Shown here piece after piece: positions 9,174 through 61,255 of a stretch of DNA of 64,000 bases (the first letter of the stretch is position 1; each line of letters begins with the position of its first letter). A model generated the notes under the pieces. It had not been told where the DNA came from, ran no database searches, and was given only the letters and a program-made list of their open reading frames with translations. The position numbers and the translations under genes are program-made. The DNA lies in the NCBI GenBank assembly GCA_903921785.1, contig CAIXRH010000131.1, forward strand, positions 1-64,000. Direction: 5' to 3'. This DNA is from an uncultured Pseudomonadota bacterium (GTDB taxonomy: Bacteria > Myxococcota_A > UBA796 > SXON01).

Positions 9174-9179
9174 TAGGCT
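9174..9179 (+). promoter_or_regulatory. -10-like TAGGCT, 5 nt before start
   Basis: TAGGCT ends 5 nt before GTG 9185. The GAGAGG just upstream would lie outside the transcript if this is the -10 element, so leaderless expression is likely. Confidence 0.5.
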
Positions 9180-9184
9180 CGCGC

Positions 9185-11038
9185 GTGCGTTGGACCTTGG
9201 CCGCGATCGCCCTCTCCCTCGCCGGCGCGATGCTGGTGATCGCGCCCGTGCTCGCGTCGCCGACCGACACGATCGTTGGCGGGTGGATCCACCCCGATTG
9301 CCTGGGGAACCACTGGCTGCTGGAGTGGGTCACCGACCAGGTGCTCCACGGGCGGAGCCTGGTCCACAACGACCGGTATTACTGGCCGATCGGCGATTCG
9401 CCGTGGCTCGCCGGCAACGGCAGCGACGGGTTCTTGTACCTGCCGTGGCACCTCCTGCTCGGCTGGCCGATGGCCTCGACCGCCCACACGCTCACCATCC
9501 TCACCCTCGACGGCGTGGGGGCGTACGCGCTCGCGCGGGCGGCAGGGGCGTCGCGGCCGGCCTCGCTCGCGGCGGCGCCCACGGCGGCGATGATGGTCTA
9601 CGCCTCCCAGGAGCTCGGCGCGGGGCGGTTCACCCAGGTGGACTTCGGCTTCTTGGCGTTCTTCCTCGCGAGCTGGCTGCGGTTGCTCGACGCGCCGTCG
9701 GCGAAGCGGGCGGTGCTCAGCGGGGTGCTCCTCGCCGCCACGTCGGTGCTCTACTGGTACTACGGGTTTTTCGGGGTCATGGCGGGCGGCTTGCTCCTGC
9801 TCGCGCGCGGGCGCGCGCTCAAGTCCGCGGCGTTGTGGAAGGCCCTCGGCGTGTTCGCGGTGAGCTACCTCGTGCTCGTGGCCCCGGTTCTGTGGGTCTT
9901 CGTCCGCCACTACGGCGACATCCCGGGCACCGCCGAGGACAACCTCTTCCCTCACCCCGAGTGCCTCGCGGACAGCTGTTGGCCGTGGTCGGCCGGCTCG
10001 ATCCTCCAGCCCGACACGATCCCGTTCATGGTCCACGGGGGGCGGCACTCCGGTCGGGCCCTCCCGATCTCCACGGCGATCCTCGGCTTCATCGGGCTGC
10101 GCGCGCGGAAGGACGCGGTGGGGCGTGGCCTCGCGCTCGTCGCCCTGCTCTTTGTGCTCCTGATGGCCGGCCCGCTCTTCCCGCACGGCCCGTTCGAGCT
10201 CATCTACGGCCTCGCCGGCCCGCTCCGCCGCTTCTGGTGGCCGTATCGGCACGTCGTCGTGCTCAACCTCGTGTGGATCACCCTTGCCGCCCTGGCGGTG
10301 GACCGGCTGCTCGCCCGTCCGGCGATCCAGGCCCGCTTCGGGCCGAAGGCGGCGACCGCGATCGGCGTCGTGCTCGCCCTCTCCATCCCCGCCCAGCTCG
10401 AGGCGGCCGGCGCGCCCTACCGGGCGCTGTTCTCCGAGGCCAAGGTGCCGGTGCCGTTCTACCAGGAGGTCGGAAAACTCCCGGGAGACGTGCTCATCGA
10501 GCCGCCCTTGAGCCCCGACCTCGCGGCCTCGCAGGCCCCGTTGATGTACCAGCTCGACCACCACAAGACCCTGCTCAACGGCCACGCGCTCTGGGTGGAG
10601 CGGGTGCGGCCGGACGAGTGGGACCGCTTCGTGGACGGCAACACCTTCCTCTTCTCGATGCGGCGCCTCGAACGCGGGGAGATCACCGACGGGGTCTTCC
10701 GGTTCCACACCGAGGACCTCCAGTCGCTCCTCGACCGAGGCGTGCGTACCGTGACCCTGAATCGGGAGTACTTCCCCGTGAAGTACCCGGAGGTCACGAC
10801 CGCGTACGCCGCCGTCTTCACGACGCTCTTCGGCGAGCCCGCGGTGAAGTCGGGGAGCAAGGCGGCGGCCTGGGACATGGGCCGGTGGAACGGCGCCACC
10901 GAGGCCCCGTTCGCGGCGTTCGACTGGCCGAAGGCGATCACCCACGGCGGCCCGACCCTCCCCACCCAGGCCGCCTCGGCCCCGTCGTTGGGCTTCTCGA
11001 TGCCCCAGCCCCCCAAGCCGCCCAAGCGGAAGGAGTGA
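9185..11038 (+). CDS. Polytopic membrane protein, GT-C/YfhO-like architecture
   Basis: A 617-residue protein with about ten or more hydrophobic helices (first at 2-25) and a hydrophilic C-terminal part of roughly 200 residues. The loop after the first helix has acidic/aromatic residues (IHPDCLGNHWLLEW, YYWPIGDSPWLAG) reminiscent of GT-C lipid-linked glycosyltransferases, but I cannot assign a family. I start at GTG 9185, directly before the first helix and 5 nt after TAGGCT. An in-frame GTG at 9122 lies inside a repeat and would add 21 charged residues. hutF begins 6 bp downstream with its own Shine-Dalgarno sequence. Confidence 0.7.
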   Translation: MRWTLAAIALSLAGAMLVIAPVLASPTDTIVGGWIHPDCLGNHWLLEWVTDQVLHGRSLVHNDRYYWPIGDSPWLAGNGSDGFLYLPWHLLLGWPMASTAHTLTILTLDGVGAYALARAAGASRPASLAAAPTAAMMVYASQELGAGRFTQVDFGFLAFFLASWLRLLDAPSAKRAVLSGVLLAATSVLYWYYGFFGVMAGGLLLLARGRALKSAALWKALGVFAVSYLVLVAPVLWVFVRHYGDIPGTAEDNLFPHPECLADSCWPWSAGSILQPDTIPFMVHGGRHSGRALPISTAILGFIGLRARKDAVGRGLALVALLFVLLMAGPLFPHGPFELIYGLAGPLRRFWWPYRHVVVLNLVWITLAALAVDRLLARPAIQARFGPKAATAIGVVLALSIPAQLEAAGAPYRALFSEAKVPVPFYQEVGKLPGDVLIEPPLSPDLAASQAPLMYQLDHHKTLLNGHALWVERVRPDEWDRFVDGNTFLFSMRRLERGEITDGVFRFHTEDLQSLLDRGVRTVTLNREYFPVKYPEVTTAYAAVFTTLFGEPAVKSGSKAAAWDMGRWNGATEAPFAAFDWPKAITHGGPTLPTQAASAPSLGFSMPQPPKPPKRKE

Positions 11039-11044
11039 CGATCG

Positions 11045-12370
11045 ATGTACTGGCTCAAGCCTGACGCCGTGCTCGTGGAGGGGACCCTCCGTCCGGACGT
11101 GTGCGTGCTCGTGAGCGGGGGAGACGGGGAGGGGACGATCCTCAGCGTCGGCGCGCCGCTCGCCCACGACGGGGTGCCGGTGATCCCGCTGCCGAAGCGC
11201 GTCCTGCTCCCCGGCTTCGTCAACGCCCACAGCCACGCCTTCCACCGCGCGCTCCGCGGGTGGGTGCAGCACGCGGCGCCGGGGATGGACGGCGGCGAAG
11301 CCTGGCGTGAGGCGATGTTCTCGCTGGCCTCCCGGCTCGACCCCGAGGCGCTGGAGGCGGTGAGCACGCTCGCGTTCGCCGAGATGGTGCGCGCCGGGTT
11401 CACCAGCGTGGGCGAGGTGCACGAGCTGCACCACCAGGCGGACGGCACGCCCTACGCCGACCCGGACGAGCTGGCGCTCCGCATCGCCGCGTCGGCCCGG
11501 CGGGTTGGGCTGCGGATGGTCCTGCTCCGCGGCGCCCGCGCCGTCGCTTCGCCGCGGGAAGCCCGGTTCGTTGACGCCGCCCCGGACGCGCCCCTCGCTG
11601 CGATCGCCCGCCTCCGCGCCCGCGGCCTCGACGTGGGGCTCTCTCCGGTGGACGCCCTGGCGTGTCCCCCCGCGTGGCTCCGCGCCTTCTCCACCGCGCC
11701 CGTGGTGATCCACGCCCGCGTCGGCGCCGACCCCGGAGAGGACGCCCGCTGCCGCGCCGCCACCGGCCGGAGCGCCGTGGAGCTCCTCGCGGACACCGGG
11801 CTGCTCGGGCCGCGCTTCACCGCCGTGCACACCATCCACACCGACGCGGACGGGCGCCGCCTGCTCCACGACACGCAAGCCGGTGTGTGCGCTTGTCCCA
11901 CCTCCGCGCTCGACCTTGGCAGCGGCTTCTTCCCCGCCGCGGAGGTGGACGCCCCGTTGTGCATCGGCACCGACAGTCAGGCGTCGATCGATCCCTTCGC
12001 GGAGCTGCGCGCCCTGGAGTGGAACGCCCGCGCGGCCGCCGGTCGCCGCGACGTGACCGCCCACCTCAACGCGGATGGCCTCGCTGCGACCCTGCTTCAA
12101 CGCGGCACCGAGCACGGGGCGCGCGCCCTCGGCCTCCACACGGGCCGCATCGCCCCTGGCTACCCGGCCGACCTCGTGGCCATCGACACCGCCCGCCTCG
12201 AATTCGGCGCGTCGCGCCTGCTCCCCGCCATCGTGTTCAACGGCAGCCCGGCCGCGGTGCGCGACGCCTGGGTCGGCGGTCGCCACGTGGTCCGCGACGG
12301 GCGCGTGCCCGGAGGGGAGGCGATCGTGGCCGAGGCGGAGCGGGCGCTGCGGCGGATCGCGCATGGATAG
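11045..12370 (+). CDS. hutF: Formimidoylglutamate deiminase HutF
   Basis: HutF, an amidohydrolase, deiminates N-formimino-L-glutamate in the five-step histidine degradation route. The 441-residue protein shows the metal-binding start of the barrel (GFVNAHSHAFHRALRGW), the HutF-typical GEVHELHH, a third metal His (VVIHARV), VHTIHTD, and the late CIGTDSQASIDPF with the catalytic Asp. GGAAGGAG precedes ATG 11045. The other hut genes are not in the window, so function rests on motifs alone. Confidence 0.88.
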   Translation: MYWLKPDAVLVEGTLRPDVCVLVSGGDGEGTILSVGAPLAHDGVPVIPLPKRVLLPGFVNAHSHAFHRALRGWVQHAAPGMDGGEAWREAMFSLASRLDPEALEAVSTLAFAEMVRAGFTSVGEVHELHHQADGTPYADPDELALRIAASARRVGLRMVLLRGARAVASPREARFVDAAPDAPLAAIARLRARGLDVGLSPVDALACPPAWLRAFSTAPVVIHARVGADPGEDARCRAATGRSAVELLADTGLLGPRFTAVHTIHTDADGRRLLHDTQAGVCACPTSALDLGSGFFPAAEVDAPLCIGTDSQASIDPFAELRALEWNARAAAGRRDVTAHLNADGLAATLLQRGTEHGARALGLHTGRIAPGYPADLVAIDTARLEFGASRLLPAIVFNGSPAAVRDAWVGGRHVVRDGRVPGGEAIVAEAERALRRIAHG

Positions 12371-12421
12371 GCGCGCGCGGGGCTTGTCCGCGGCGCGGCG
12401 GCGTGGGATGTTCGCAGCGAC

Positions 12422-13557: not shown

Positions 13558-13560
13558 CCC

Positions 13561-15138: not shown

Positions 15139-15141
15139 CGA

Positions 15142-20667: not shown

Positions 20668-20766
20668 GTGTCCATCTTTGCACACCGTTGTCTGAGCGTC
20701 CACATCTCGGCGCGACCTTGCCTGAAAGATGTGTACTTCGTGGAGACAATCGGCTATGGTGCGCCC
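20668..20766. promoter_or_regulatory. Divergent promoter/operator region between two HTH genes
   Basis: AAAGATG occurs once towards each gene (minus strand about 20672-20678, plus strand 20726-20732). CACATCT (20701-20707) and AGATGTG (20727-20733) form an inverted repeat. TATGGT (20755-20760) ends 6 nt before the plus-strand ATG. Confidence 0.5.
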
Positions 20767-21291
20767 ATGCCCACGCGATCCCCCACCGAGTTGCTCCTCC
20801 GGAACATCCCCCCGAGCCCCGGCGCCGCCGGGGTGGCCGCCATCACCTGGGAGGCGCGGGCGTCGTTCGGCCCCTACCTGCGCGCCCTGCGCGAGGCGGC
20901 CCGGCTCTCCCTGCGCTCGGCCTCGGAGCAGATGGGCGTTTCGTTCAGCTACCTCGCCAAGATCGAGACGGGCGAGCGCTCCTCGCCGCCCACGTTGAAG
21001 GTGCTCCAGCGGATGGCCAAGCTCTACGGCCGGGACCTCCGCGAGTTGATGCACGAGGCCGGCTTCCGGTTCGAGACACCTGCCGACCAGGTGGACGAGA
21101 ACATCGACCGCCAGTTCGAGCGGCTGGTCACCTACCCCGCGCTCCGGCCCATGCTCATGGACGCGGGGGTCATTGACATGATCCCGCGCAAGCTCAAGCG
21201 CCAGTGGGTGGAGTTCGCGCGCAAGCTGGAGAAACACGTCCTCGACAGCGACGTGGAGATCAAGGACATCCTCAGCGGGAAGGAGGCGTGA
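20767..21291 (+). CDS. XRE-family transcriptional regulator
   Basis: A 174-residue protein with an XRE HTH (about 32-88): LRALREAARLSLRSASEQMG, VSFSYLAKIETGERSSPP, LKVLQRMAKLYGRDLREL. A helical C-terminal domain of unknown type follows. The start ATG 20767 is preceded by a TATGGT hexamer 6 nt away and no ribosome site. Its TGA overlaps the recombinase ATG (TGATG), so it is coupled to and probably controls recombinase expression. Confidence 0.85.
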   Translation: MPTRSPTELLLRNIPPSPGAAGVAAITWEARASFGPYLRALREAARLSLRSASEQMGVSFSYLAKIETGERSSPPTLKVLQRMAKLYGRDLRELMHEAGFRFETPADQVDENIDRQFERLVTYPALRPMLMDAGVIDMIPRKLKRQWVEFARKLEKHVLDSDVEIKDILSGKEA

Positions 21292-24308: not shown

Positions 24309-27101
24309 TCACTCGTCGTCGTCCACAACCCGCACGCGGGGGTCGTGAACCGGCGAGGGCATGGGCACGTCTCCCTTCACGTCCTCCCAGAGGATGCGGT
24401 TGAGCAGCTCGGTGTCCACCGCGTCGGCGTGGGCGAAGTCCATGCGCTCGGACTCCCGAGACCCCTTGCTCTCGGGAGTGTTCATCGTGTAGATGAGCCC
24501 ATTGTCGCGATTGGAGTAGTTGGCCGTGAACGCGGGGTGGTCGCCGCTCCCCGCGAAGACGGGCCCGAAGACGGGGGCCCACGCGTCGTGGTGGTTCATC
24601 GGGGGGAGCCCGAGGAGCGCCTCCATCGTGTGGATGAGGCTGACCGTGGTGTAGAACGTGTGGTCCACCACGGGCGTCTCGGCGCGGCTCGGGGAGAAGC
24701 GGCTGGCCACGAAGGCGATGCTTCGGTGCGCGTCCACGTGGTCGGCGCCGTCCTGGGCGTCGTCCTCCAGGGCGAAGATCGCGGTGTCTTCCCAGTAGGT
24801 CGAGTGGCTGACGGCCTCGACGACGCGCCCGAGGGCGAGGTCGTTGTCCGCCACGGCCGCGCGGGGGGAGGCCTTCCCGGCCTGCGTGCCCGAGGTGTGG
24901 TCGCTGCTGAAGCGGAGCACGATGAACGCCGGCATGGTGTCGCCTTTCCCCGCCGCGCGGTCCGCGCTCCAGGCGGCGAACTCGTCAAGGAACTGGTCGG
25001 CCCGGAGTTGGTCGGGGTAGTCCATCCGGAAGTCGGCGTACCCGGCGGCGTAGTTTCCCACGAGCTCGGGCATGGTCGGTACGTTCGCGGCGACGATCGG
25101 GATCGGCCACGGCCAGGGGTTCGCGCGCGTACCCCCATGGCCGTCCGGCAGGGGCTCGCCCGGCTTCACGAATTCCTTCGAGCACTTCGCCCCGCCGGTG
25201 AGCGGGGTGCCGTTGACCGGGTTGGCCACTGGCGGGTCGTCGCACCAGATGCTGGTCACGAATTCCCCGTAGTTGCGGTGGCTGAGCCCGTGCGCGTGGG
25301 CGTTGCCCCAGACATATCCGGTGGCGGGGCTGTCCACGTCGGGGATGCCGAGCTGGATCGGGAACGCGCCTTGCACCTGCCCCTCGTAGTCGTAGTATCG
25401 CTCATCGCTTCGATAGCCGATCTGCCAGGTACGCTCGGTGTAGTCGCTGCTCGTGCCGGCCATCGACCACACATGGCCGTCGCCGGAGACCTCCCCCGAG
25501 CAGAAGAAGTGGTCGAGCACCCCGAACTGACGGGCGAGCGCATGCTGGTTCGGGGTGACGTCCTCGCCGTAGAGGGTGAGCGACGGGTCGCCGTCGCCGA
25601 CGCCGAGGTCCCCGAGCACCTGGTCATAGGTGCGGTTCTCCTTGATGACGTAGACGACGTGCTTGATGGGGCCCGCGGTGGTGAGCGTGGGCGGAGTGCC
25701 GGACAGGCGGTTGTTGCGCATCGCCTCGTCGGTGAGGCTGTCGAGGGCGGGGAGGGCAGCTTCGACCTCCACTCTCGCGATGGAGCCCGGGAGGATGGAG
25801 GCGATGTAGGGGTGCGCCCGCTTGGAGCCGGGGAGAGGAGGGCCGCTGTTGGGCCCGGTGCCCTTGCCCTTGCCGGCGGCGATGAACAGGTCCCCCGCCA
25901 CCGCGGCAACCGCGGTCGGGTACCACTCCGTGGGAATGAAGCCGGCCGCCTCGCCGGTCCGGGCGTCGAGGACGGCGACCGCGTCCGCGCCGGCCTCCGC
26001 GACGTAGAGTGTGCGTTGATCCGGGGAGAGCGCCAAGGCGTCCGGGAGCCCGCCGCCGTACTTCTGACCGGGCAGCAGCGTGGAGAAGCGCTTCGTCACC
26101 TTTCCGCTGCCGGTGTCGATCAGGGCCACGGCGTCTGCGTTCGCCAGCGCGACGTAGAGCTTCGAGCCGTCCTTGGAGAGCACCATCGCCGTGGGGTGCG
26201 AGCCCGGGGCGGTCGGATCCGCCGGCGCCGCCACGGGGATGTGGCGAGCCACCTTGCCCTTCTTCAGGTCCACCTCCGCGACCGCGGAGCCGTTCCACAG
26301 CGACACCCAGGCCCGCGTGCCATTTCTGCTCGCGACCACGCCGTACGGGAAGGCGCTGGGGACCCACTTGTTGTCGCCCACGTCGACGCGGTGGGTGACT
26401 GCGCCGGTGGTCGCGTCCACCACGACGAGCTCGTCGGAGAGGTTGGCGGCCACCAGGAGCGTGTCGCCGTGTTTCCCGGGGATCACGGCGAGGCCCGCCG
26501 GGTAGGGCGGGGCGCGGCCGGCTGGCGCGGCCCCGAGCGGCGCGGCGAGCGCGCGGCCCTCCGGGAGGACCCGGAGTGGGAGTGGGAAGAACCGACTCGG
26601 AGTGAGCCCCTCCGCCGACACCCGGTAGACGGCGATGCCGTTGCCCGTGGCCGGCGCGTCGCCGGGCTCTCTTCCCGCGCCGGCGCGCGTGCCCTCGGGG
26701 TTGGATGTTGACGCAAACGACACGTAGAGCTCGTCCCCCTTGGAGGAGAACGCGAGGCCGACGAAGGCCGTCTGGCTGGCGCCGTAGGCGAGGCGAGGGT
26801 CAGGGAAGTCCCGCAGCCGGCCAGTGGCCCGGTCCAGCAGAACGATCGACTGCTGAAGCCCGGAGCCGGTGGTGCCGAAGCCATTTGCCAGCCAAGCAAG
26901 AGTATTTTGGTCGGGCGACACCGCCACCGCCGACGGGAAGGAGTTGGTGGCGGCGGGCTGGCCGGGCGCGGGCGCCTCAAGCCGCTGGCCGGTGGGGAGC
27001 TCCACCGGGGCATTGGGGGCGGCAAAGGAATGGAATGCGAGGGCGGCGATCGAGGCTGACACCGCGAGGCCGAGGCCCCGCCGGGCGACGAAGGAGGACA
27101 T
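24309..27101 (-). CDS. YVTN-type beta-propeller fused to AcpA/PLC-like phosphoesterase
   Basis: The 930-residue secreted protein begins MSSFVARRGLGLAVSASIAAL (signal peptide). Residues about 30-430 form a seven-bladed propeller of YVTN/40-residue repeats (TLLVAANLSDELVVVD, KLYVALANADAVALID, TLYVAEAGADAVAVLD). The C-terminal half is an alkaline-phosphatase-superfamily phosphoesterase of the phospholipase C/acid phosphatase type: HVVYVIKENRTYDQVLGDLG, VSGDGHVWSMAG, FSSDHTSGT and ALEDDAQDGADHVDAHRS carry the metal ligands. ATG 27101 lies 6 nt after TATCGT (27108-27113). The substrate is unknown. Confidence 0.9.
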   Translation of the reverse strand: MSSFVARRGLGLAVSASIAALAFHSFAAPNAPVELPTGQRLEAPAPGQPAATNSFPSAVAVSPDQNTLAWLANGFGTTGSGLQQSIVLLDRATGRLRDFPDPRLAYGASQTAFVGLAFSSKGDELYVSFASTSNPEGTRAGAGREPGDAPATGNGIAVYRVSAEGLTPSRFFPLPLRVLPEGRALAAPLGAAPAGRAPPYPAGLAVIPGKHGDTLLVAANLSDELVVVDATTGAVTHRVDVGDNKWVPSAFPYGVVASRNGTRAWVSLWNGSAVAEVDLKKGKVARHIPVAAPADPTAPGSHPTAMVLSKDGSKLYVALANADAVALIDTGSGKVTKRFSTLLPGQKYGGGLPDALALSPDQRTLYVAEAGADAVAVLDARTGEAAGFIPTEWYPTAVAAVAGDLFIAAGKGKGTGPNSGPPLPGSKRAHPYIASILPGSIARVEVEAALPALDSLTDEAMRNNRLSGTPPTLTTAGPIKHVVYVIKENRTYDQVLGDLGVGDGDPSLTLYGEDVTPNQHALARQFGVLDHFFCSGEVSGDGHVWSMAGTSSDYTERTWQIGYRSDERYYDYEGQVQGAFPIQLGIPDVDSPATGYVWGNAHAHGLSHRNYGEFVTSIWCDDPPVANPVNGTPLTGGAKCSKEFVKPGEPLPDGHGGTRANPWPWPIPIVAANVPTMPELVGNYAAGYADFRMDYPDQLRADQFLDEFAAWSADRAAGKGDTMPAFIVLRFSSDHTSGTQAGKASPRAAVADNDLALGRVVEAVSHSTYWEDTAIFALEDDAQDGADHVDAHRSIAFVASRFSPSRAETPVVDHTFYTTVSLIHTMEALLGLPPMNHHDAWAPVFGPVFAGSGDHPAFTANYSNRDNGLIYTMNTPESKGSRESERMDFAHADAVDTELLNRILWEDVKGDVPMPSPVHDPRVRVVDDDE

Positions 27102-27107: not shown

Positions 27108-27113
27108 ACGATA
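27108..27113 (-). promoter_or_regulatory. -10-like TATCGT, 6 nt before start
   Basis: On the minus strand TATCGT is followed by GTGAGG and then ATG 27101. If it is the -10 box the transcript would begin at or next to the start codon. Confidence 0.5.
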
Positions 27114-27180
27114 GCACGGGCGTCGTCGACGCTCCCTGTGGGTCCTTGTTGTGGGGTTTTTCGTTTCTGACGACATCCGC

Positions 27181-27208
27181 TTGCACTTTCAGGTTCTGGC
27201 GCTATGCT
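27181..27208 (+). promoter_or_regulatory. Sigma-70-like promoter of the TadE/TadG pair
   Basis: TTGCAC (27181-27186), a 16-bp spacer and TATGCT (27203-27208). The -10 box contains ATG 27204, so translation more likely starts at ATG 27216, 7 nt further, as a leaderless transcript. Confidence 0.6.
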
Positions 27209-27215: not shown

Positions 27216-27671
27216 ATGTTGCGCCAAGGTACCCCTCGCGTCGCCCCGGACCGCCGTCGGCGGCGGGGCAGTCAGGCCGTGGAGTTCGCGCTCATCCTGC
27301 CGATCCTCACCGTGATGCTGCTCGGTCTCGTCGATTACGGCTGGTTCTTCCTGCGCCAGTCCCTGGTGGTCAACTCGGTGCGGGAGGCGATGCGCTTCGG
27401 CGCGCTGCAGACTCCCGCCTCGGGCGATGCCACGGGAGACTGCTCCACGTGCACCGATGGTGCCGCCGCGGAGATCGTCCTTCTCCTCGGGGAGATCGAC
27501 ATTTCCGTGAGCGCCTCCGACGTCACGCCGGTGATCGTCAACATCGCCGGAACCTGCGCCATGCAGCTCCGGCCCACCATCCCGTACGATCCGCTCACCG
27601 GGTTCGTCCCGGTTCCCGCCGCGTACGACGTCAACGCCACCGTCTTCCTGCAGAACGTCACCGGGTGCTGA
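27216..27671 (+). CDS. TadE-like pilus-assembly pseudopilin
   Basis: A 151-residue protein with a basic N-terminus followed by the TadE motif: G-S-Q-A-V-E-F-A-L-I-L-P-I-L and a 20-residue hydrophobic helix (about 25-45) with Glu at position 5 of the processed form. TadE-like proteins are minor pseudopilins of the Flp/Tad pilus. No tadA, tadB or tadC is nearby. ATG 27204 is in frame but lies in the -10 element, so ATG 27216 is chosen. The TadG-like gene follows 20 bp downstream. Confidence 0.85.
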   Translation: MLRQGTPRVAPDRRRRRGSQAVEFALILPILTVMLLGLVDYGWFFLRQSLVVNSVREAMRFGALQTPASGDATGDCSTCTDGAAAEIVLLLGEIDISVSASDVTPVIVNIAGTCAMQLRPTIPYDPLTGFVPVPAAYDVNATVFLQNVTGC

Positions 27672-28942: not shown

Positions 28943-31531
28943 ATGACCCTGTTCCTCCTCAGCCTCGGCGCGGCGTACGCCCATAGCGCCGGGATGTCCG
29001 GCGACTCGGTGACCGGCTGCGGCTGCCACTCGGCCGCCACGTCGGCCTCGGTCGGCGCCAGCTTCTCCGCGTCGGCCAGCACGGTCGCTCCGGGGGACAG
29101 CGTCACGGTCTACCTCACCGTGACGAGCTCCTCGTCCAGCCGCACCTACGGCGGGCTCGACGTGTCGGCGACGGGCGGCACGCTGGGCGCCGGCAGCAAC
29201 ACCCGGACGATGGCGAGCGACGTCACCCATTCGGCCGGCACGGCGATGAGCTCCGGCAGCGTCACGTTCGACATGACGTGGACCGCCCCGGCCGTCGAGG
29301 GCAGCTACTCTCTCCGTGGCGTCGGGCTGGCCTCCAACAACAACGGCAGCGACGGCGGCGATGCCTGGAACTCCGCCAGCGCCTACACCCTCACGGTGGA
29401 CGACGGCTGCGACGACCTGGACGGCGACGGCTACGAGTGGTGCGAAGACGGCTCGGGCGCCGATTGCGACGACGCCGACAGCGCGGTCTACCCAGGCGCC
29501 ACCGAGTCCTGCGACAGCATCGACAACGACTGCGACGGTACGACAGACGAGTCCTCCGCCGTGGACGCCGAGACCTGGTACCTCGACGCCGATGCCGATG
29601 GGTGGGGCGTGTCCACCAGCTTCACCGTCGCGTGCGATCAGCCCTCCGGCTACTCGGCGGACGACACCGACTGCAACGACGCTGAGGCTACGGTGCACCC
29701 GGAGGCCGCCGAGACCTGCAACGGGGTGGACGACGACTGCGATGGCACCGTCGATCCGTCGACCAGCCTTGATACATCTACGTGGTACGCCGATGTCGAC
29801 GCCGATGGTTGGGGCGGGACCACTTCGGTCGCCTCCTGCACCCGTCCGTCCGGCTACGTGCCCGACGGCGGCGACTGCGACGATGCCCGGCCCGCGGTGA
29901 ACCCCGCTGCCACCGAGACGTGCGACGGGGTCGACCAGGACTGCAACGGCACCATCGATGACGCCGCCGTGGATGAGCGCACCTGGTATGTCGACGCCGA
30001 CGGTGACGGTTTCGGCGACGCCGCGAGCACCACCACGGCGTGCACCGTCCCGTCGGGCTACTCCGCCTTTGCCGGGGATTGTCTTGATGCAGACTCGATG
30101 TATCACCCGAGCGCCGCCGAAGACTGCAGCGCCACGGGGGACTACAACTGCGACGGCACCACCGGCCTCGGCGACGGCGACGGCGACGGCTACAACGCGT
30201 GCACCGAGTGCGACGACGGCGACGCCGCGATCCATCCGGGGGCCAGTGAGCGGTGCAACGGGGTGGACGACGACTGCGACGGTACGGTGGATCCCGACAC
30301 CGCCATCGACGCCTCATTGTGGTTCGCCGACACCGACCTCGACGGGTTCGGCGATGCATCGGCGAGCTCGGTGGCCTGTACCGCCCCCTCGGGCTTCGTC
30401 ACCGACGCGTCCGACTGCGACGACGCCGATCCCACCGCTTTCCCCGGTGCCCCCGAGACCTGCGACGCGGTGGATGACGACTGCAACGGCACCGCGGATG
30501 ATGCAGCGGTTGATGCATCTACGTGGTACGCTGATGTCGACGGCGACGGCTTCGGCGACGCCACCAGCGCCGCCGCGAGCTGCGCCGCACCCACCGGTTA
30601 CCTCGCGGATTCTACGGATTGCGACGACGCGGACGCCGCTTCGGCGCCCGGCGCCCCCGAGACCTGCGACGGCAAGGACGACGACTGCGACGGCACGGTC
30701 GACGAGCCGGACGCGGTGGACGCGCTCCCCTGGTACGCGGACGTCGACGGCGATGGATTCGGCGATCTCACGTCCGCCACCCTCGCGTGCAGCGCCCCGA
30801 CGGGCACCGTCGGCGAGCCGACGGACTGCAATGACGCCGACGTCGCGATCTCCCCCGACGCCGCCGAACTCTGGTACGACGGGGTGGATCAGGACTGTGA
30901 CGGAAACGATGCAGACGCCGATCACGACGGGTGGCTCTTCCCCACCGACTGTGAGGATGACGACGCAGAGGTGAATCCGGGCACCTCCGACATCCCCTAC
31001 GACGGGGTGGACGCCGACTGCTCCGGAAACTCCGACTACGACCAGGACGCCGACGGCTACGACAGCGAGGGCTACGGCGGCACGGATTGCGACGACGCCG
31101 ACCCCACGACCTACGTTGGCGCACCCGATCTCGGCGATGGCGTCGAGCACGACTGCGACGTCCGCAACGATCACGATCGCGATGACGACGGCTACGACGA
31201 CGTGGCCTACGGCGGCGACGACTGCGACGACGCCGACAGCGACGTCCACCCGGGCGCGACCGAGACCTGGTACAACGGCGTCGATCAGGACTGCGACGGC
31301 GCGGATGACGACGACCAGGACGGCGACGGGGTGCCGGTGGCGGACGATTGCGACGACACCGACGCGGCCGTGGCGCTCGACTGCGACACGGGTGCGCCGG
31401 CCGACACCGACACGGGCTCCGGAAGCCCCGAGGAGGGCGGCTGTGGCTGCACGACGGTGCCCGGGCCCGAGGCGCTTGGAGCCGGGCTCTTGGTGCTGGC
31501 CGTGGTGAGGCGGCGCCGCGTCGGGGGGTGA
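28943..31531 (+). CDS. Large MopE-repeat surface protein with MYXO-CTERM-like tail
   Basis: The 862-residue protein has a signal peptide (1-13), an N-terminal beta domain resembling the 'choice-of-anchor V' domain (VTGCGCHSA ... GSYSLRGVGLASNNNGSDGGDAW), then about a dozen MopE-like units of 45-50 residues (WYADVDGDGFGD, DCDDAD, ETCDGKDDDCDGTVDE). The C-terminus EEGGCGCTTVPGPEALGAG...VVRRRR is a MYXO-CTERM-like sorting signal (Cys-Gly-Cys, hydrophobic helix, Arg cluster), expected to anchor it to the surface. Metal binding is inferred. Confidence 0.85.
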   Translation: MTLFLLSLGAAYAHSAGMSGDSVTGCGCHSAATSASVGASFSASASTVAPGDSVTVYLTVTSSSSSRTYGGLDVSATGGTLGAGSNTRTMASDVTHSAGTAMSSGSVTFDMTWTAPAVEGSYSLRGVGLASNNNGSDGGDAWNSASAYTLTVDDGCDDLDGDGYEWCEDGSGADCDDADSAVYPGATESCDSIDNDCDGTTDESSAVDAETWYLDADADGWGVSTSFTVACDQPSGYSADDTDCNDAEATVHPEAAETCNGVDDDCDGTVDPSTSLDTSTWYADVDADGWGGTTSVASCTRPSGYVPDGGDCDDARPAVNPAATETCDGVDQDCNGTIDDAAVDERTWYVDADGDGFGDAASTTTACTVPSGYSAFAGDCLDADSMYHPSAAEDCSATGDYNCDGTTGLGDGDGDGYNACTECDDGDAAIHPGASERCNGVDDDCDGTVDPDTAIDASLWFADTDLDGFGDASASSVACTAPSGFVTDASDCDDADPTAFPGAPETCDAVDDDCNGTADDAAVDASTWYADVDGDGFGDATSAAASCAAPTGYLADSTDCDDADAASAPGAPETCDGKDDDCDGTVDEPDAVDALPWYADVDGDGFGDLTSATLACSAPTGTVGEPTDCNDADVAISPDAAELWYDGVDQDCDGNDADADHDGWLFPTDCEDDDAEVNPGTSDIPYDGVDADCSGNSDYDQDADGYDSEGYGGTDCDDADPTTYVGAPDLGDGVEHDCDVRNDHDRDDDGYDDVAYGGDDCDDADSDVHPGATETWYNGVDQDCDGADDDDQDGDGVPVADDCDDTDAAVALDCDTGAPADTDTGSGSPEEGGCGCTTVPGPEALGAGLLVLAVVRRRRVGG

Positions 31532-31637: not shown

Positions 31638-31663
31638 TCGGCTCGACCGATACGTCGGCGTGG

Positions 31664-31669
31664 TAGCTT
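31664..31669 (+). promoter_or_regulatory. -10-like TAGCTT, 6 nt before start
   Basis: TAGCTT is followed by GCCCCG and ATG 31676, with no ribosome-binding sequence. A weak TCGACC lies upstream at -35 distance. Confidence 0.5.
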
Positions 31670-33943: not shown

Positions 33944-33981
33944 GGCCCCAATTACCGCGCCGGGCACGGGTCCGCCCCGCC

Positions 33982-34061: not shown

Positions 34062-34075
34062 GGATACAAGACTCC

Positions 34076-40346: not shown

Positions 40347-40465
40347 GAGGTCTCCGAGGGGCGCGCGGACTATCACGCTCTCGCGGCGGCGTCGCCGCGC
40401 CGGTGCGGCGTCGTCTGTGCCCTGCGCGCGTACGGCCCGGTGGCGGCTCCGCTCGCGCGCCGTGC

Positions 40466-40471
40466 TACGCT
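40466..40471 (+). promoter_or_regulatory. -10-like TACGCT, 6 nt before start
   Basis: TACGCT is followed by CTGCCC and GTG 40478. No ribosome-binding sequence is present between them. Confidence 0.5.
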
Positions 40472-40477: not shown

Positions 40478-41545
40478 GTGCGATCCCGCCTGCTCCGCCT
40501 CCTGCCCGGCCTCGCGGTCAGTGGGGCGTTCATCCTCTGGTTCCTCACCAACGCCCACTGGGCGGAGGTCCGCGAGTCGCTCGCGGGGGTGAAGCTGGGG
40601 TGGGTGGCGCTGAGCGTGTTGGTGCTGTTCACCGAGTTCCTCATCCGCGCCGCCCGGTGGAAAGTCCTGCTCTGGGATATCGCGCCCAAGGCGCGCTACT
40701 CCCGCCTCTTCGTCGCCACCACCATCTGCATGGCGCTCAACGTGGTGTTCCCGTTCCGCGCCGGCGACTTCGCCCGCCCCTGGCTCGGCTCCCGGGAGAC
40801 CGGCACGTCGATGCTCCCGCTCGCGACCGTGGCGGTCATCGAGCGGGTGTTCGACATCCTCGGCTTGCTCAGCGTCTTCTTGCTGATGCTGGCCGTGCTC
40901 CCGGCCAACGCCGAGGCGCACGGAGAGCTGGTCTACAACCTGAAGTTCTACGGTTCCCTGGCGGGCGTCGCCGGAGTGGTGGGGCTCTCCACGTTCCTGG
41001 TCTTCGCCGCGAACGAGGACCGCGCTGGGCAGCTCTTCGCCCGAATCGTCGGGGCGATGCCGGTCCCGGCGCCGGTCAGGCGCAAGGTGATGGGGCTGTA
41101 CCTCGGCTTCGTGGGCGGGCTCTCCAGCGTGCGGTCCTCGGGCGCCCTGGTGCGCGCCGGGCTGCTCTCGGTGCTGCACTGGTTCAACGGATCGTTGAGC
41201 ATCTTCGCGCTGATGCACGCGTTCGGGATGCAGATGCCGTTTGCGTCGGCGTGCTTCACCACGGTGGCGATCGCGCTCACCGTGGCGCTCCCACAGGCGC
41301 CGGGGTTCGTGGGGCCCTTCCAGGTCGCCATCGAGAAGACGCTGGTTCTCTGGGGGCAGGACCCCGGGCCGGCCCAGGCGTTCGCCATGGTCTTCTGGGG
41401 GGTGTCGTTCCTCCCGGTGGCGACGGTGGGGGCGCTCTTCTGGTGGCGAGAGGGGCTCACCACGGAGGTGCTCCGGCGGCAACTCTCGGGGGCGGCGGAG
41501 GCTTCGGGCCCGCCCGGCGCGGCGGAACCGTCCAGTTCGGGCTAA
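40478..41545 (+). CDS. Flippase-like membrane protein (YbhN/LPG-synthase TM family)
   Basis: A 355-residue polytopic protein of the lysylphosphatidylglycerol synthase TM region/UPF0104 family: LLPGLAVSGAFILWF, EFLIRAARWKVLLWD, MALNVVFPFRAGDFARPWL, ERVFDILGLLSVF, and ALTVALPQAPGFVGPFQVAIEKTLVLWG (the conserved P-x-x-P-G-x-x-G region). Members flip or transfer lipid-linked intermediates. GTG 40478 is used; the upstream frame lacks family sequence. A MopE lipoprotein gene begins 9 bp after the stop. Confidence 0.85.
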   Translation: MRSRLLRLLPGLAVSGAFILWFLTNAHWAEVRESLAGVKLGWVALSVLVLFTEFLIRAARWKVLLWDIAPKARYSRLFVATTICMALNVVFPFRAGDFARPWLGSRETGTSMLPLATVAVIERVFDILGLLSVFLLMLAVLPANAEAHGELVYNLKFYGSLAGVAGVVGLSTFLVFAANEDRAGQLFARIVGAMPVPAPVRRKVMGLYLGFVGGLSSVRSSGALVRAGLLSVLHWFNGSLSIFALMHAFGMQMPFASACFTTVAIALTVALPQAPGFVGPFQVAIEKTLVLWGQDPGPAQAFAMVFWGVSFLPVATVGALFWWREGLTTEVLRRQLSGAAEASGPPGAAEPSSSG

Positions 41546-41548
41546 CGT
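41543..41548 (+). promoter_or_regulatory. -10-like TAACGT, 6 nt before start
   Basis: TAACGT overlaps the TAA stop of the preceding gene and is followed by CTGCGC and ATG 41555. It could give a second, leaderless transcript. Confidence 0.4.
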
Positions 41549-41554: not shown

Positions 41555-42493
41555 ATGCGCGGTCTCCTCGTCCTGGTCGCCCTGTACGCCTCCGGCTGCT
41601 GCATCCCCTGGGACGTCTTCCCGTTTGACTCGGTGGACTCTGGCCAGTTCTGCCTCGATCAGGACGGCGACGGCGTTCAGTCCTGCGTGGGCGATCCGGG
41701 TGACTGCGATGACCTCGATCCCACCGTCACCGCCATCTACCTCGGCCCCGAGACCTGCAACGGGATCGACGACGACTGCAACGGTCTGGTCGACGAGAAC
41801 GTCGGCTACCACCCCGACAACGATGGCGACGGTCACGGCGACCCGAACACGGTGAGCTGCCGACAAGACCCCGGCTACGTGCTCACCTGGGACGACTGCG
41901 ACGACACCAACCCCGACGTGTACACCGATCACCCTGAGCTCTGCGACGGGATCGACAACGACTGCGACGGCGTGGCCGACGATGACGCGGCGTTGTACCC
42001 CGACATCGACGGCGACGGGTACGGCGACGCCGACCTCCCCTCGTGCACCGAGGGCACCACCACCCTCGGCGGCGACTGCGACGACGCCAACCCCGACGTC
42101 CACCCCGGCGTCGTGGAGGTCTGCAACAGCGTCGACGACGACTGCGACGGCACGGTCGACGGTCGGGTGAATCGCTACGTGGATCAGGACGCCGACGGCT
42201 ACGGCAAGGACCCCGCCACGAAGGCGGATACCTGCGCGTCTGGCTACGCCGGCATCGGCGGCGACTGCGATGACGGCGACCCCACGAGCTACCCCGGCGC
42301 TCCCGAGACCTGCACCGACACCACCGACTACAACTGCGACGGCTCGGTCGGCTCGGTGGACGCCGACCGCGACGGCTCGCCCGCCTGCGAAGACTGCGAC
42401 GACAGCCTCTGGTACGTGTACCCCGGGGCCACCGAGACCTGCGACGACGGCATCGACGAAGACTGCGACGGCGAGATCGACGACGGATGTTGA
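41555..42493 (+). CDS. MopE-repeat lipoprotein
   Basis: A 312-residue lipoprotein (signal LLVLVALYASGC) made almost entirely of six or so MopE-like units: ETCNGIDDDCNGLVDENVGYHPDNDGDGHGD-type blocks with D-C-D-D-x-N-P-D and C-D-G-I-D-N-D-C-D-G. All repeats have paired Cys flanking the acidic loop. It has no separate C-terminal domain, so it may be a pure metal-binding surface protein. The C-terminus ends in DCDGEIDDGC. Confidence 0.82.
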   Translation: MRGLLVLVALYASGCCIPWDVFPFDSVDSGQFCLDQDGDGVQSCVGDPGDCDDLDPTVTAIYLGPETCNGIDDDCNGLVDENVGYHPDNDGDGHGDPNTVSCRQDPGYVLTWDDCDDTNPDVYTDHPELCDGIDNDCDGVADDDAALYPDIDGDGYGDADLPSCTEGTTTLGGDCDDANPDVHPGVVEVCNSVDDDCDGTVDGRVNRYVDQDADGYGKDPATKADTCASGYAGIGGDCDDGDPTSYPGAPETCTDTTDYNCDGSVGSVDADRDGSPACEDCDDSLWYVYPGATETCDDGIDEDCDGEIDDGC

Positions 42494-46502: not shown

Positions 46503-46535
46503 GGGCCGGGCGTGGTGAGTGCTTGCCGCTCGGGA

Positions 46536-46541
46536 TAGCCT
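46536..46541 (+). promoter_or_regulatory. -10-like TAGCCT, 6 nt before start
   Basis: TAGCCT is followed by CCCGAG and ATG 46548. Nothing resembling a ribosome-binding site lies between them. Confidence 0.45.
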
Positions 46542-46547: not shown

Positions 46548-47821
46548 ATGCATGCCCTGGCGTTCGTGCTGGTGTTCGGCGTGGCCTGCGACGGCGACCC
46601 CCCCACGTACGAATCCGACCTGCATCAGGTCGTCTTCTCCGAAGAGTCCGGCATCGTGGACGTCGCAGCGTCCCCCGCCCCCTACGGGGTCCTCCAGGGG
46701 ACCACCATGCACCTGTCGCCGACGTGCCCGCTGGGCTCGCCGTGCGCCAACGTCGCGCACGGCGCGAGCCTGTGCTTCGACTACTCTATGTCAGCCGGTC
46801 ACCAGGACGGCATGGTCGCGACGTTCGACACGCCGGGACCGGTCACGCTGAACCTCGAGCCGAAGGCGTGTGGGCTGCCCGCTTCGGCGCCGCAGCCGAG
46901 CTCGGACGCCGTGCCGTTCGACGTCGTGGCGCCGGAGGACGTCGAGGGCGTCACGCCGATGCAGCCCGAGGCCTACACGGAGGGCCCCTACGTCTACCTC
47001 GACGCACCGGAGGGGTGGCTGAGGGAGGACTCGGCGCCTTGGCGGCTCGTGTCCGGGCAGGCGTTCGAGCTCACCGCATCCCTGCGGAAGCGGGGCTCCG
47101 GGACGATCCTCGCGCACCCCGCCGGGACCTGGCGGCTGGACGGCGCGAGTGAGGTGCAGCCTTCCGGCTACGCGTCGATGTCGGCGACGGTGCTCGCGCG
47201 CGGCTCAGGTCGGCAGACGCTGAGCTACCAGACCGTCGGCAGGAGCTTCCCGGTCGCCCCCCTCGACGTCGTCGCACACCCGACGGTGGCGCGCATGGAG
47301 CTGGCCGTCGGGTGGTCGGCAGGGGGGCCCATCCCACGCGGTCCGGCGGGTCCTTCTTCGTCCGGGCGGTGCTCTGGGACGAGGCGGGAAACCTGATCTT
47401 CGGCGCACCGGTCCATTGGTCCGTCGACCGGATGGTGGCGGTCGCGGGTCCCCAGCCCGCGGTGCTCGCGTCCTGGCTCCCGGGGGCGGACTACCTGTAC
47501 CTGAAGGATCTCTGCCGGGACCCGACCGCGGAGCACGGGGCGGCGATGGCGACGCTTCGCGCGAGCTATGGAGGCCAGCACGCAGCCAAAAGGCTGAGGT
47601 GGATCGTGCCCGACCCGGCGGAGGGTGGGGAGCCGTGGGTGGCCAGCCCGCTGTGCTCGAATCGTCTCGGCGGGAGCCCGAACACGGGCGAGGGCTCGCC
47701 CCTGTTCGGCATCGGCCTGCTCGGGTGGCTCGGGTGGTCGGGGTGGCGGCGGCGTCCGCCGACGCGGGGCTCCCCGGCGGGGACCACGCGCTCCTCAAGG
47801 ACCTCTGCCACGATCCCGTGA
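46548..47821 (+). pseudogene. Lipoprotein gene with a single-base frameshift
   Basis: The first frame (46548 to about 47325) starts MHALAFVLVFGVACDGD (lipobox) and runs as a beta-type exported protein. At a run of six G (about 47322-47327) the sense reading switches to the frame that carries FFVRAVLWDEAGNLIFGAPVHW, DYLYLKDLCRD and a C-terminal helix GIGLLGWLGWSGWRRR. A seventh G would restore one frame of about 420 residues. Without it the first frame ends at 47396. This is either a real inactivation or a sequencing/assembly error. The C-terminal 95 residues are repeated in the following fragment. Confidence 0.7.
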
Positions 47822-48807: not shown

Positions 48808-48880
48808 GGGAGCGGGGTGCGTCAGACCGCGCTCAGACTCCCCGCTCCCCGCTGAAATCCGAGGCAGCTACCTGAGAACC

Positions 48881-49333
48881 ATGCTCCTCGCGCTCCTCAC
48901 GGCTTCCGCCCTCGCCGCCACCCCGGTCGCCAGCCTCGGCTGGGGCACCGGCGTCTTCGCTCAGGCGCCGGCCATCCGCACGGCCGACAGCCTGTCGTTC
49001 ACGGTGCGCGTGGCCCCGTGGTTCGCCGTGGAGGGGGCCGCGACGCTCGGCCTCGGCCCGGGCGGGCTGGTGGCCCCGGGGTTGATCCCCGGGGCGTGGG
49101 GCGGCGCGCGCTTCGGCGGGACGGCCGGCCCGTATGGCGCGCTGCGCGTCGGCGGTGACTCCACCGGGGCGCGGGGCGGGCTGGCCCTCGGGTGGAGCGT
49201 ACACCCGACGCCCGGGTTCTGGTGGGGGCCCGAGCTTCAAGGCGGCGCGGCCTACGGGAGCGGCGTGTACGCGGGCGGCGGCTTTCGGATGGAGTGGGCC
49301 ACGGCGCGGGCGCCGACGGCCGCGGCGGACTGA
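48881..49333 (+). CDS. Small exported beta-barrel-like protein
   Basis: A 150-residue protein with a signal peptide (MLLALLTASALA) and alternating Gly/hydrophobic strands (FTVRVAPWFAVEGAATLGLG, WGGARFGGTAGPYGALRVGG, GLALGWSV) as in small outer-membrane beta-barrels. The C-terminus is not a typical Phe-ended strand, so the barrel call is tentative. TACCTG lies 6 nt before the ATG. Confidence 0.6.
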   Translation: MLLALLTASALAATPVASLGWGTGVFAQAPAIRTADSLSFTVRVAPWFAVEGAATLGLGPGGLVAPGLIPGAWGGARFGGTAGPYGALRVGGDSTGARGGLALGWSVHPTPGFWWGPELQGGAAYGSGVYAGGGFRMEWATARAPTAAAD

Positions 49334-50493: not shown

Positions 50494-52992
<2,499 letters not shown>

Positions 52993-59015: not shown

Positions 59016-59027
59016 CGAGAGGAATCA

Positions 59028-59483: not shown

Positions 59484-59488
59484 GCCCG

Positions 59489-59554
59489 ATCTGGGCGATG
59501 CCCGGATCACGCGCCGCCCGGGCCGGGCGATCCTGCCTGGGCATCGCGGCGCCG
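59489..59554. repeat. Intergenic element, family 3, copy 2
   Basis: ATCTGGGCGATGC (59489-59501) and GCATCGCGGCGCCG (59541-59554) recur with near-identical spacing at 48115-48182. Confidence 0.6.
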
Positions 59555-59601
59555 ACGGGGCGGTGGCCTTGGCCCCGCGCGGGCCTGACCGCCGAGTCGC
59601 C

Positions 59602-60150
59602 CTACGGCGACTGCGGCGGCCCTGCCTCGCGGACGAGCTGCAGGAGCCGCGCGAACGCCCGCGTGGCCGCGGGGCCTGTACCCCGTGCTTCGCGTGCTGC
59701 CGTCCGCAGCGCCTGACGGTCACCGTTGGGGCACTCTTGGAGGAAGTCCTGGAGCAGCGCGTCGTCCCCGGCGACGAGGCGCTGCCGCCACCGTACGCTC
59801 TCGGACTCCCAGCGGGCGGCCGGACCCTCGCCGGCGAGGGCGGCCCGGAGCAGCTCCGGGTCCACGTTGGCGAGGAGCAGCTTCGCGCGCATCAGGAGGC
59901 GCCGGCGATCGGGCTTCGGCTCGGCGGCGGCGAGGAGGTCGAACTGGGCCTGGGCGTCGGCGTCGAGGGGGAGGGCGCGGCGGCGACCGACGGGCATCGC
60001 CGCGATCTGGTTGGACAGGGCCTTGAGCTCGTCCATGTCGGCGCGATGTTCGCTGCGAACGGGGCGCCCGGCGTCGACCGCTTCGGCCGCGTTGGCCTCG
60101 TCGGCGTCGAAGTCGTCGGGAGGATCGGAATTTCGGGGTTTGCGCGCCAT
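59602..60150 (-). CDS. DarP/YjgA-like ribosome-associated protein
   Basis: A 182-residue protein: charged N-terminus (MARKPRNSDPPDDFDADE), then MDELKALSNQIAAMPVGRRRALPLD, ALLAAAEPKPDRRRLLMRAKLLLA and a helical C-terminus. This pattern (LxxLxxxxLxxLPLP, then KxxxRxRQLxYIGKLMR-type) is that of the DUF615/YjgA family, which assists 50S ribosome assembly. The match is moderate. Its start is only 24 nt from the next, divergent start. Confidence 0.65.
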   Translation of the reverse strand: MARKPRNSDPPDDFDADEANAAEAVDAGRPVRSEHRADMDELKALSNQIAAMPVGRRRALPLDADAQAQFDLLAAAEPKPDRRRLLMRAKLLLANVDPELLRAALAGEGPAARWESESVRWRQRLVAGDDALLQDFLQECPNGDRQALRTAAREARGTGPAATRAFARLLQLVREAGPPQSP

Positions 60151-60161
60151 CGCGCCGGCGG

Positions 60162-60167
60162 TATCAT
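60162..60167 (+). promoter_or_regulatory. -10-like TATCAT, 7 nt before start
   Basis: TATCAT is followed by CGGGGGC and ATG 60175. It lies in the 24-bp gap between two divergent start codons. Confidence 0.5.
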
Positions 60168-60174
60168 CGGGGGC

Positions 60175-60636
60175 ATGTGGATGCTCCTCCTGCCTTCGGC
60201 ACTGGCGCTCGACTGCGGCGAGATCCTCGGGATGCTCGACGCGGGCGTGCCGACCTCGATCGTCGCGACCACCCTCGAAGCCGCCGGCTCGACCTACGAT
60301 TCGGACACGATCGCCTGCCTCTCCGGCACCCCGCCCGAAGTCCGGACGGCGGTCGCGGCGCACGCCTCGCCCTTGCCGCCCGCGCAAGAACCGCCCGCGT
60401 GCCCGGCGCCGGCGCCCGCCGCCGCGCTTCCGTCGCGCCTCGCGGGGGCCATCACCGCGTGCGCCGACACCCCGGACCAGCTCCGGGTGCTCGCCGCCGC
60501 TTGCAACGACGCCGGCTGTTCGGTCACCACGACCGACGATCCGCGCGCCAGCCGCACGTGCATCCGCATTCCTGCGTTCAAGGTGACGACGGTGCCCGGG
60601 GCGGACGGAAGCTGCCGGCGGCTGCGCCCGCGCTGA
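60175..60636 (+). CDS. Small exported Cys-containing protein
   Basis: A 153-residue protein with a signal peptide (MWMLLLPSALA), a helical region (CGEILGMLDAGVPTSIVATTLEAAG), a Pro/Ala linker and a Cys-rich end (CNDAGCSVTTTDDPRASRTCIRI). No family recognised. It is followed at 19 bp by a membrane protein gene. Confidence 0.65.
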   Translation: MWMLLLPSALALDCGEILGMLDAGVPTSIVATTLEAAGSTYDSDTIACLSGTPPEVRTAVAAHASPLPPAQEPPACPAPAPAAALPSRLAGAITACADTPDQLRVLAAACNDAGCSVTTTDDPRASRTCIRIPAFKVTTVPGADGSCRRLRPR

Positions 60637-60643
60637 GGCGCGC

Positions 60644-60649
60644 TATCTT
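60644..60649 (+). promoter_or_regulatory. -10-like TATCTT, 6 nt before start
   Basis: TATCTT is followed by CCGGGC and ATG 60656, with no ribosome site. Confidence 0.5.
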
Positions 60650-60655
60650 CCGGGC

Positions 60656-61255
60656 ATGACCGCGCCCGCGCCCGCTGGCCTGCTCCGCGCCCGCTCCGCC
60701 TGGGGCTGGTTGTGGCGCACGGCGGTGATGACGGCGCTCGGCGGGCTGGTCGCGGCGGCGCCGTGGGTGATCCTGGTGGTCCTGTCCACCGTGCTCCTCG
60801 GGGTGGACGTGGTCGCGATGCTGGCGCGGCTGATCACGGCGCGGGAAGCCGGCAACAACTTCGCGGGGGCGGCCATCTGGCTCGGGGCGGTCCTCGTCTC
60901 CCCCGCCATCGCCGTGGCCGCGGTGCTCGGCGCCCCCCTCGGCCCGGCGGCGCTCGCGGGCGCGCGGCGGCGCCTCCTTTTCCTGGCCGGCGCGGCGATC
61001 GCCGCCGTGGCCGCCTGGCCGGCCGTGGCCGCGCTGACCCTGATCCCGGACGGGTTCGCCGAGGTCCCCGGTCCGTTCTTCCCGGTCCTGGGCGCCGCCT
61101 ACGCGCTCCTCGCCTGGCCCTTGCTCACGCTGCTGCTCATTCCGGGCACCATGGGGCTCCGCGCGCTGGGGGACCTGCTCCGTCGAGGCGGGTCACGCCG
61201 CCGCGGCGCCCCGCTCCGCGAGCCACACCCTCGGGGGAGCGGGAGCGACCGATAG
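60656..61255 (+). CDS. Four-helix membrane protein, unknown
   Basis: A 199-residue protein with four or five hydrophobic helices (about 25-55, 70-100, 105-130, 140-165) and an Arg-rich, probably cytoplasmic tail (RRGGSRRRGAPLREPHPRG). No family recognised. It may be cotranscribed with the small exported protein upstream but has its own -10-like hexamer. Confidence 0.65.
   Translation: MTAPAPAGLLRARSAWGWLWRTAVMTALGGLVAAAPWVILVVLSTVLLGVDVVAMLARLITAREAGNNFAGAAIWLGAVLVSPAIAVAAVLGAPLGPAALAGARRRLLFLAGAAIAAVAAWPAVAALTLIPDGFAEVPGPFFPVLGAAYALLAWPLLTLLLIPGTMGLRALGDLLRRGGSRRRGAPLREPHPRGSGSDR

What the first reader, a model, noticed from the sequence alone, without database searches (positions are those of the whole stretch)
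9174..60658. Widespread leaderless transcription signature
At least ten genes that start a transcription unit have TANNNT ending 5-7 nt before the start codon. Starts and hexamers: 9185 (TAGGCT), 20767 (TATGGT), 27101 (TATCGT), 27216 (TATGCT), 31676 (TAGCTT), 40478 (TACGCT), 41555 (TAACGT), 46548 (TAGCCT), 60175 (TATCAT), 60656 (TATCTT). Near misses occur at 33943, 34076, 48881, 60150 and 62435. None has a usable ribosome-binding site between hexamer and start, while genes inside operons do. At about 15% T and 15% A, chance would give roughly 1% per gene. Leaderless genes are known in Actinobacteria and Deinococcus. I am not aware of this being a defining trait of Myxococcota.
Basis: partly seen in the sequence, partly recalled or inferred. 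Interest (0 to 1): 0.75.

Follow-up and report, generated by a model that had tools for sequence, protein, structure and literature searches.

The report
Leaderless genes with a shortened promoter
In this freshwater Myxococcota-type bacterium about one in five genes that begin a transcript appears to be copied into RNA starting exactly at its start codon, from a shortened promoter (GnTA) whose last conserved base is often missing; the general phenomenon is known, but this promoter form and its patchy spread among close relatives look new.

Summary
In 1.23 Mb of the same genome, TANNNT sits exactly 6 nt before the start codon in 6.1% of TU-first genes, against 0.1% at internal in-frame ATG/GTG decoys. 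An unsupervised model relearned the same 6-nt register. One window promoter keeps it across its family while the surrounding bases change. Leaderless transcription is by far the best explanation, though no 5' end could be mapped.

Two corrections. First, the hexamer is not TANNNT but G(-14)-n-T(-12)-A(-11). The -7 T is dispensable, and all five 'near misses' are ordinary GnTA sites. Counting GnTA, about 23% of TU-first genes qualify against 2% expected. No -35 consensus stands out. Second, the trait is patchy. It occurs in this family and, with -7 T, in other families of the order, but was not detected in one family of the same order.

Leaderless genes were already predicted in 8 of 33 delta-proteobacterial genomes in 2011. 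What is new is the promoter variant and its distribution.

The parts
9172..9179 (+). GnTA -10 box GATAGGCT, 5 nt before GTG start at 9185
   Evidence: LL posterior 0.96
20753..20760 (+). GnTA -10 box GCTATGGT, 6 nt before ATG at 20767 (HTH regulator)
   Evidence: LL posterior only 0.30; homologues align from residue 1
27108..27115 (-). GnTA -10 box GCTATCGT, 6 nt before ATG at 27101
   Evidence: LL posterior 0.99
27201..27208 (+). GnTA -10 box GCTATGCT, 7 nt before ATG at 27216 (TadE-like protein)
   Evidence: LL posterior 0.93; TadE domain begins at residue 18
31662..31669 (+). GnTA -10 box GGTAGCTT, 6 nt before ATG at 31676 (CsgG-like)
   Evidence: LL posterior 1.0; orthologue L146 keeps GnTA in register without -7T (GAATAGGCGCGTCGG-ATG)
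40464..40471 (+). GnTA -10 box GCTACGCT, 6 nt before GTG at 40478 (LPG synthase-like membrane protein)
   Evidence: CGTGnTA-n10-start conserved in most family orthologues; LL posterior 1.0
41541..41548 (+). GnTA box GCTAACGT, 6 nt before ATG at 41555 (MopE-type protein); its TAA is also the stop codon of the upstream gene
   Evidence: LL posterior 0.99
46534..46541 (+). GnTA -10 box GATAGCCT, 6 nt before ATG at 46548
   Evidence: LL posterior 1.0
60160..60167 (+). GnTA -10 box GGTATCAT, 7 nt before ATG at 60175; overlaps the box of the divergent DarP gene and shares its TA step
   Evidence: my gene caller missed this gene
60642..60649 (+). GnTA -10 box GCTATCTT, 6 nt before ATG at 60656
   Evidence: LL posterior 1.0
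33949..33956 (-). GnTA box without -7T, GGTAATTG, 5 nt before ATG at 33943 (YARHG protein); a reader 'near miss'
   Evidence: LL posterior 0.52
34063..34070 (+). GnTA box without -7T, GATACAAG, 5 nt before ATG at 34076; a reader 'near miss'
   Evidence: my caller preferred GTG 34034
48867..48874 (+). GnTA box without -7T, GCTACCTG, 6 nt before ATG at 48881; a reader 'near miss'
   Evidence: LL posterior 0.84
60158..60165 (-). GnTA box without -7T, GATACCGC, 7 nt before ATG at 60150 (DarP); a reader 'near miss'
62442..62449 (-). GnTA box without -7T, GATATTGC, 6 nt before GTG at 62435 (GH6 protein); a reader 'near miss'
   Evidence: LL posterior 0.95

Best explanation
These are leaderless genes. 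RNA polymerase with the housekeeping sigma-70 recognises a minimal extended -10 element, G(-14)-n-T(-12)-A(-11), usually without a recognisable -35 and often without the -7 T, and starts RNA at or within a nucleotide or two of the A or G of the start codon. The mRNA therefore has no leader, and 70S ribosomes or fMet-tRNA-loaded subunits start on the 5'-terminal AUG/GUG. The same genome also uses ordinary SD-led genes, some with the same GnTA box moved about 15 nt upstream to give a minimal leader just long enough for an SD. Shown from sequence: the enrichment, register, G-14, dispensable -7 T, lack of a clear -35, conservation at one gene, absence of signal in a sister family. Inferred: that sigma-70 reads the box, that transcription starts at the start codon, and that leaderless initiation follows; that CdnL/CarD helps open promoters lacking -7 T is a guess.
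For: Motif-blind starts: GnTAnnnT at gap 6, 26 versus 0.45 expected; GnTAnnn[ACG] at gap 6, 33 versus 1.88; without G-14 only 3 versus 0.76. GnTA at gap 5-8 in about 113 of 483 TU-first genes versus about 9 expected, and the effect holds in divergent-only subsets. EM started from flat spacing learned gap 6 at 47% and gap 5-8 at 92%, and G-14 at 84%; confident leaderless calls are 27% of divergent genes, 5.6% of operon-internal genes and 1-3% with shuffled upstreams. All 15 reader sites carry G-14, a feature not used to pick them (P about 2e-7 at 35.5% G). Orthologues of 40478 at 53-75% protein identity mostly keep CGTGnTA-n10-(A/G)TG while the spacer diverges. Negative controls at similar GC show nothing: f3 of the same order and Gemmatimonadota. 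Deinococcus MP1 is a positive control. RpoD has conserved regions 2.4, 3.0 and 4.2.
Against: No RNA 5' ends are available. The gene finder is home-made and only 16% of the genome was used. A weak -35 in a minority cannot be excluded (19 of 206 at spacer 16-18, versus 5-19 at other offsets). Orthologues of 31676, 24309 and DarP keep the box only partly or not at all. In the mixture model about 12-19% posterior weight goes to the leaderless class even in shuffled sequence, so only high-posterior calls and raw counts are used.
Confidence: 0.87

Rival explanations
1. The box is a real -10 element but the true translation start lies downstream, so these genes have short leaders and the called starts are wrong.
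For: Short-leader promoters with the same box at gap 17-25 exist in this genome, and start calling in GC-rich DNA is uncertain.
Against: The spacing to the start codon peaks sharply at 6 nt with starts chosen blind to the motif. At 40478 the start codon is conserved in register with the box in most family orthologues. For 27216 the domain needs the upstream start.
Confidence: 0.08
2. Chance or base-composition artefact: AT-rich upstream DNA and free choice among start codons give TANNNT hits.
For: Free choice of starts does raise the chance rate to about 6% per gene in the window.
Against: The peak is confined to one spacing, is absent at decoys and in two control groups of similar GC, and carries an unselected G-14.
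Confidence: 0.01
3. The GnTA box is a binding site for another factor (an alternative sigma factor or a regulator) or a translation signal, not the housekeeping -10 element.
For: Sites lacking -7 T prefer A/T at -13 (47 of 69, versus 15 of 44 in sites with -7 T), so two promoter classes might exist. No -35 was found.
Against: Position and T-12 A-11 match the sigma-70 -10 core and G-14 matches the extended -10. The sites are spread over many genes, and the same box recurs at gap 17-25 in SD-led genes.
Confidence: 0.07

Closest known systems
Leaderless genes with TANNNT next to the ORF in Deinococcus-Thermus (PMC12340547, PMC3160421)
   Same: A -10-like box a few nt before the start codon, no classical -35 at most genes, coexistence with SD-led genes, 20-30% of genes or TU-first genes.
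   Different: In Deinococcus MP1 the -7 T is required (12 sites with T, 0 without) and G-14 is not (5 of 12). Here G-14 is in about 88% and T-7 in only about 41% of the excess sites.
Leaderless genes of Actinobacteria (PMC3160421, PMC3898074)
   Same: TANNNT about 6 nt before ATG/GTG in GC-rich DNA.
   Different: Distant lineage; the -7 T is part of the published consensus.
Leaderless genes predicted in delta-Proteobacteria (Zheng 2011: 8 of 33 genomes, average 15.8%; PMC3160421)
   Same: The broader group in which this organism used to be filed, with a similar fraction of genes.
   Different: The main text does not name the eight genomes. No G-14 or -7 T variant and no within-order loss is reported there.
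sigma-70 promoters lacking -7 T in Alphaproteobacteria, proposed to depend on CarD (PMC8407463)
   Same: Most promoters lack -7 T; a CarD/CdnL-family protein is encoded.
   Different: Here the promoters are leaderless and carry G-14; dependence on CdnL is untested.

Membership tests
Leaderless genes (general) | -10 box in fixed register about 6 nt before the start codon, well above chance | tested here: met
Leaderless genes (general) | No usable SD between box and start | tested here: met
   only 5-8 nt lie between box and start
Leaderless genes (general) | Primary 5' end of the mRNA at the start codon | not testable with these tools
   no RNA data for this lineage
TANNNT type of Deinococcus/Actinobacteria | T at -7 (last base of TANNNT) conserved | tested here: not met
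   GnTAnnn[ACG] 69 versus 7.5 expected outnumbers GnTAnnnT 44 versus 1.8
sigma-70 extended -10 promoter | G at -14 | tested here: met
   86% of strict sites versus 32% in coding background; 15 of 15 reader sites
sigma-70 extended -10 promoter | T at -15 (TG motif) | tested here: inconclusive
   24% versus about 15% background; conserved at the 40478 promoter
sigma-70 extended -10 promoter | Little need for a -35 element | tested here: met
   KL at most 0.06 at every position from -6 to -45 before the hexamer; 19 of 206 with at least 4/6 TTGACA at spacer 16-18, within the range of other offsets
sigma-70 extended -10 promoter | RpoD region 3.0 His/Glu pair that contacts G-14 (from general knowledge of E. 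coli sigma-70) | tested here: met
   VHMIET present in own RpoD and in the relatives with readable sequence; residue roles from memory
-7T-less CarD-dependent promoters | Majority lack -7 T | tested here: met
-7T-less CarD-dependent promoters | CarD/CdnL encoded | tested here: met
   G000:C21:18589, 175-aa frame; but relatives in f3 have it too
-7T-less CarD-dependent promoters | Transcription depends on CarD | not testable with these tools
   needs an experiment

The most novel reading that the evidence does not exclude
One family of Myxococcota-type bacteria has changed its housekeeping -10 code. The promoter is read as G-(A/T)-T-A with neither -35 nor -7 T, placed directly on start codons or about 15 nt upstream, with G-14 and A/T at -13 compensating for the lost -7 T and possibly CdnL helping. 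A sister family of the same order has lost leaderless genes, or never had them, so the switch happened within one order.
Probability: 0.4. Interest if true: 0.65.

Novelty: new variant of a known kind. Interest (0 to 1): 0.52.

Why it matters
If true, about a fifth of TU-first genes here start without a leader, so standard SD-based gene finders would misplace many starts. The promoter has about four conserved bases and fixes both transcription start and translation start at once. The presence of the trait in some families of one order and its apparent absence in another gives a close comparison for asking what in RNA polymerase, CdnL or the ribosome allows leaderless gene expression.

Tried and rejected
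Genome-wide shared-TA bidirectional promoters were sought after seeing the 60150/60175 pair: none in 133 divergent pairs. A -35 was sought by information content and by TTGACA matching: nothing clear. Enrichment of lipoproteins or exported proteins among leaderless genes: no clear difference (13 of 156 versus 19 of 198 lipobox-like; 36 of 156 versus 29 of 198 hydrophobic N-termini). Sample sizes for Rhodococcus, G113 and G123 are too small for firm motif logos.

Full report
Where the window lies. The window is bases 1-64000 of a 90.6-kb contig (C131) in a 7.48-Mb, 362-contig genome. A formal lineage was not obtained.

The listed sites. All ten hexamers are there, 5-7 nt before the start. Two of the genes (41555, 60656) follow a co-directional gene by 9 and 19 nt.

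Genome-wide test. I took 1.23 Mb of the genome, called 1008 genes with a codon-usage gene finder whose start choice uses only coding signal and start-codon type, and measured TANNNT by distance to the start. In TU-first genes there is a single sharp peak at 6 nt (6.1%). Operon-internal genes give 2.0%, and 17,306 in-frame internal ATG/GTG decoys give 0.1%. A mixture model with SD, leaderless and no-signal classes, started from flat spacing, learned the same spacing and placed 27% of divergent genes confidently in the leaderless class, against 1-3% with shuffled upstreams.

What the box really is. Aligning the sites showed a strong G two bases before the hexamer, the -14 position of an extended -10. 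Splitting by G-14 and T-7 with motif-blind starts gives, at 6 nt: GnTAnnnT 26 (0.45 expected), GnTAnnn[ACG] 33 (1.88), and TANNNT without G only 3 (0.76). So G-14 is close to essential and T-7 is optional. Sites lacking -7 T prefer A/T at -13 (47 of 69, versus 15 of 44 with -7 T, Fisher P 0.0005), and family relatives agree (14 of 19 versus 1 of 12). No -35 stands out. A second cluster of the same box at 17-25 nt before the start marks short-leader genes.

Conservation. For 40478 (LPG synthase-like), family orthologues at 53-75% identity mostly read CGTG-n-TA-n10-(A/G)TG, with diverged spacers and no SD. Some swap GCTACGCT for GATAGTTC, losing -7 T and gaining A at -13, as in the genome-wide trend. 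In other families of the order the start region has changed. Orthologues of 31676, 24309 and DarP show partial or no conservation, so single promoters do turn over.

Distribution. The same pipeline on other groups found the signal in about 20 further loci of the family and in other families of the order. The latter show it mainly with -7 T (10 sites with G and T versus 0.9 expected; 5 with G and no T versus 4.0). A genome of another class (G113) has a peak at 7-8 nt. No signal was detected in family f3 of the same order (100 TU-first genes; SD class 95%), G027, G123, Gemmatimonadota or Planctomycetota; the G027 and G123 samples are small. Deinococcus radiodurans MP1, a known case, is positive, but needs -7 T and not G-14.

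How it most likely works. RpoD here has conserved regions 2.4, 3.0 and 4.2, and a CdnL/CarD-family protein is encoded. I infer that sigma-70 reads GnTA as a minimal extended -10, RNA starts at or next to the start codon, and ribosomes initiate on the 5'-terminal AUG/GUG. The start of transcription was not measured.

Known versus new. Leaderless genes with TANNNT are established in Actinobacteria and Deinococcus-Thermus (PMC3160421, PMC12340547). They were predicted in 8 of 33 delta-proteobacterial genomes, averaging 15.8%, and GeneMarkS-2 predicted them in 21.6% of bacterial species (quoted in PMC9581028). Promoters lacking -7 T are known from Alphaproteobacteria (PMC8407463). I found no paper in the held library on leaderless genes in Myxococcota specifically; most subscription journals are not held. 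The combination of leaderless, G-14, optional -7 T and no clear -35 in one family, and its apparent absence in a sister family, is what I consider new.

Noticed in passing
window 60150-60175: Divergent genes (DarP on minus, unknown on plus) start 25 bp apart; their two GnTA boxes overlap and share one TA step (60162-60163), as in a symmetric bidirectional promoter. No second case in 133 divergent pairs.
   Followed up: yes
genome-wide, e.g. L052:10326-10376, L054:10866-10919: Many divergent gene pairs with starts only 32-57 bp apart hold two back-to-back GnTA boxes that fill most of the intergenic region.
   Followed up: partly
genome-wide, gap 17-25 nt before SD-led starts: A second cluster of GnTA boxes implies very short leaders of about 12-18 nt, just long enough for an SD.
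   Followed up: partly
window 2775-4799, 28943-31531, 41555-42493, 50494-52992: At least four proteins with repeated MopE-type putative metal-binding motifs (PF11617) in one 64-kb window.
   Followed up: no
L253, L254, L258 (genome contigs): Public MAG contigs titled 'Klebsiella pneumoniae' encode proteins 60-69% identical to this lineage's and carry its promoter form; the titles look wrong.
   Followed up: no
window 20767-21291: HTH regulator with several close copies per genome in relatives (96% identical in G005, multiple copies in G004 and G011), suggesting a mobile or multicopy element.
   Followed up: no
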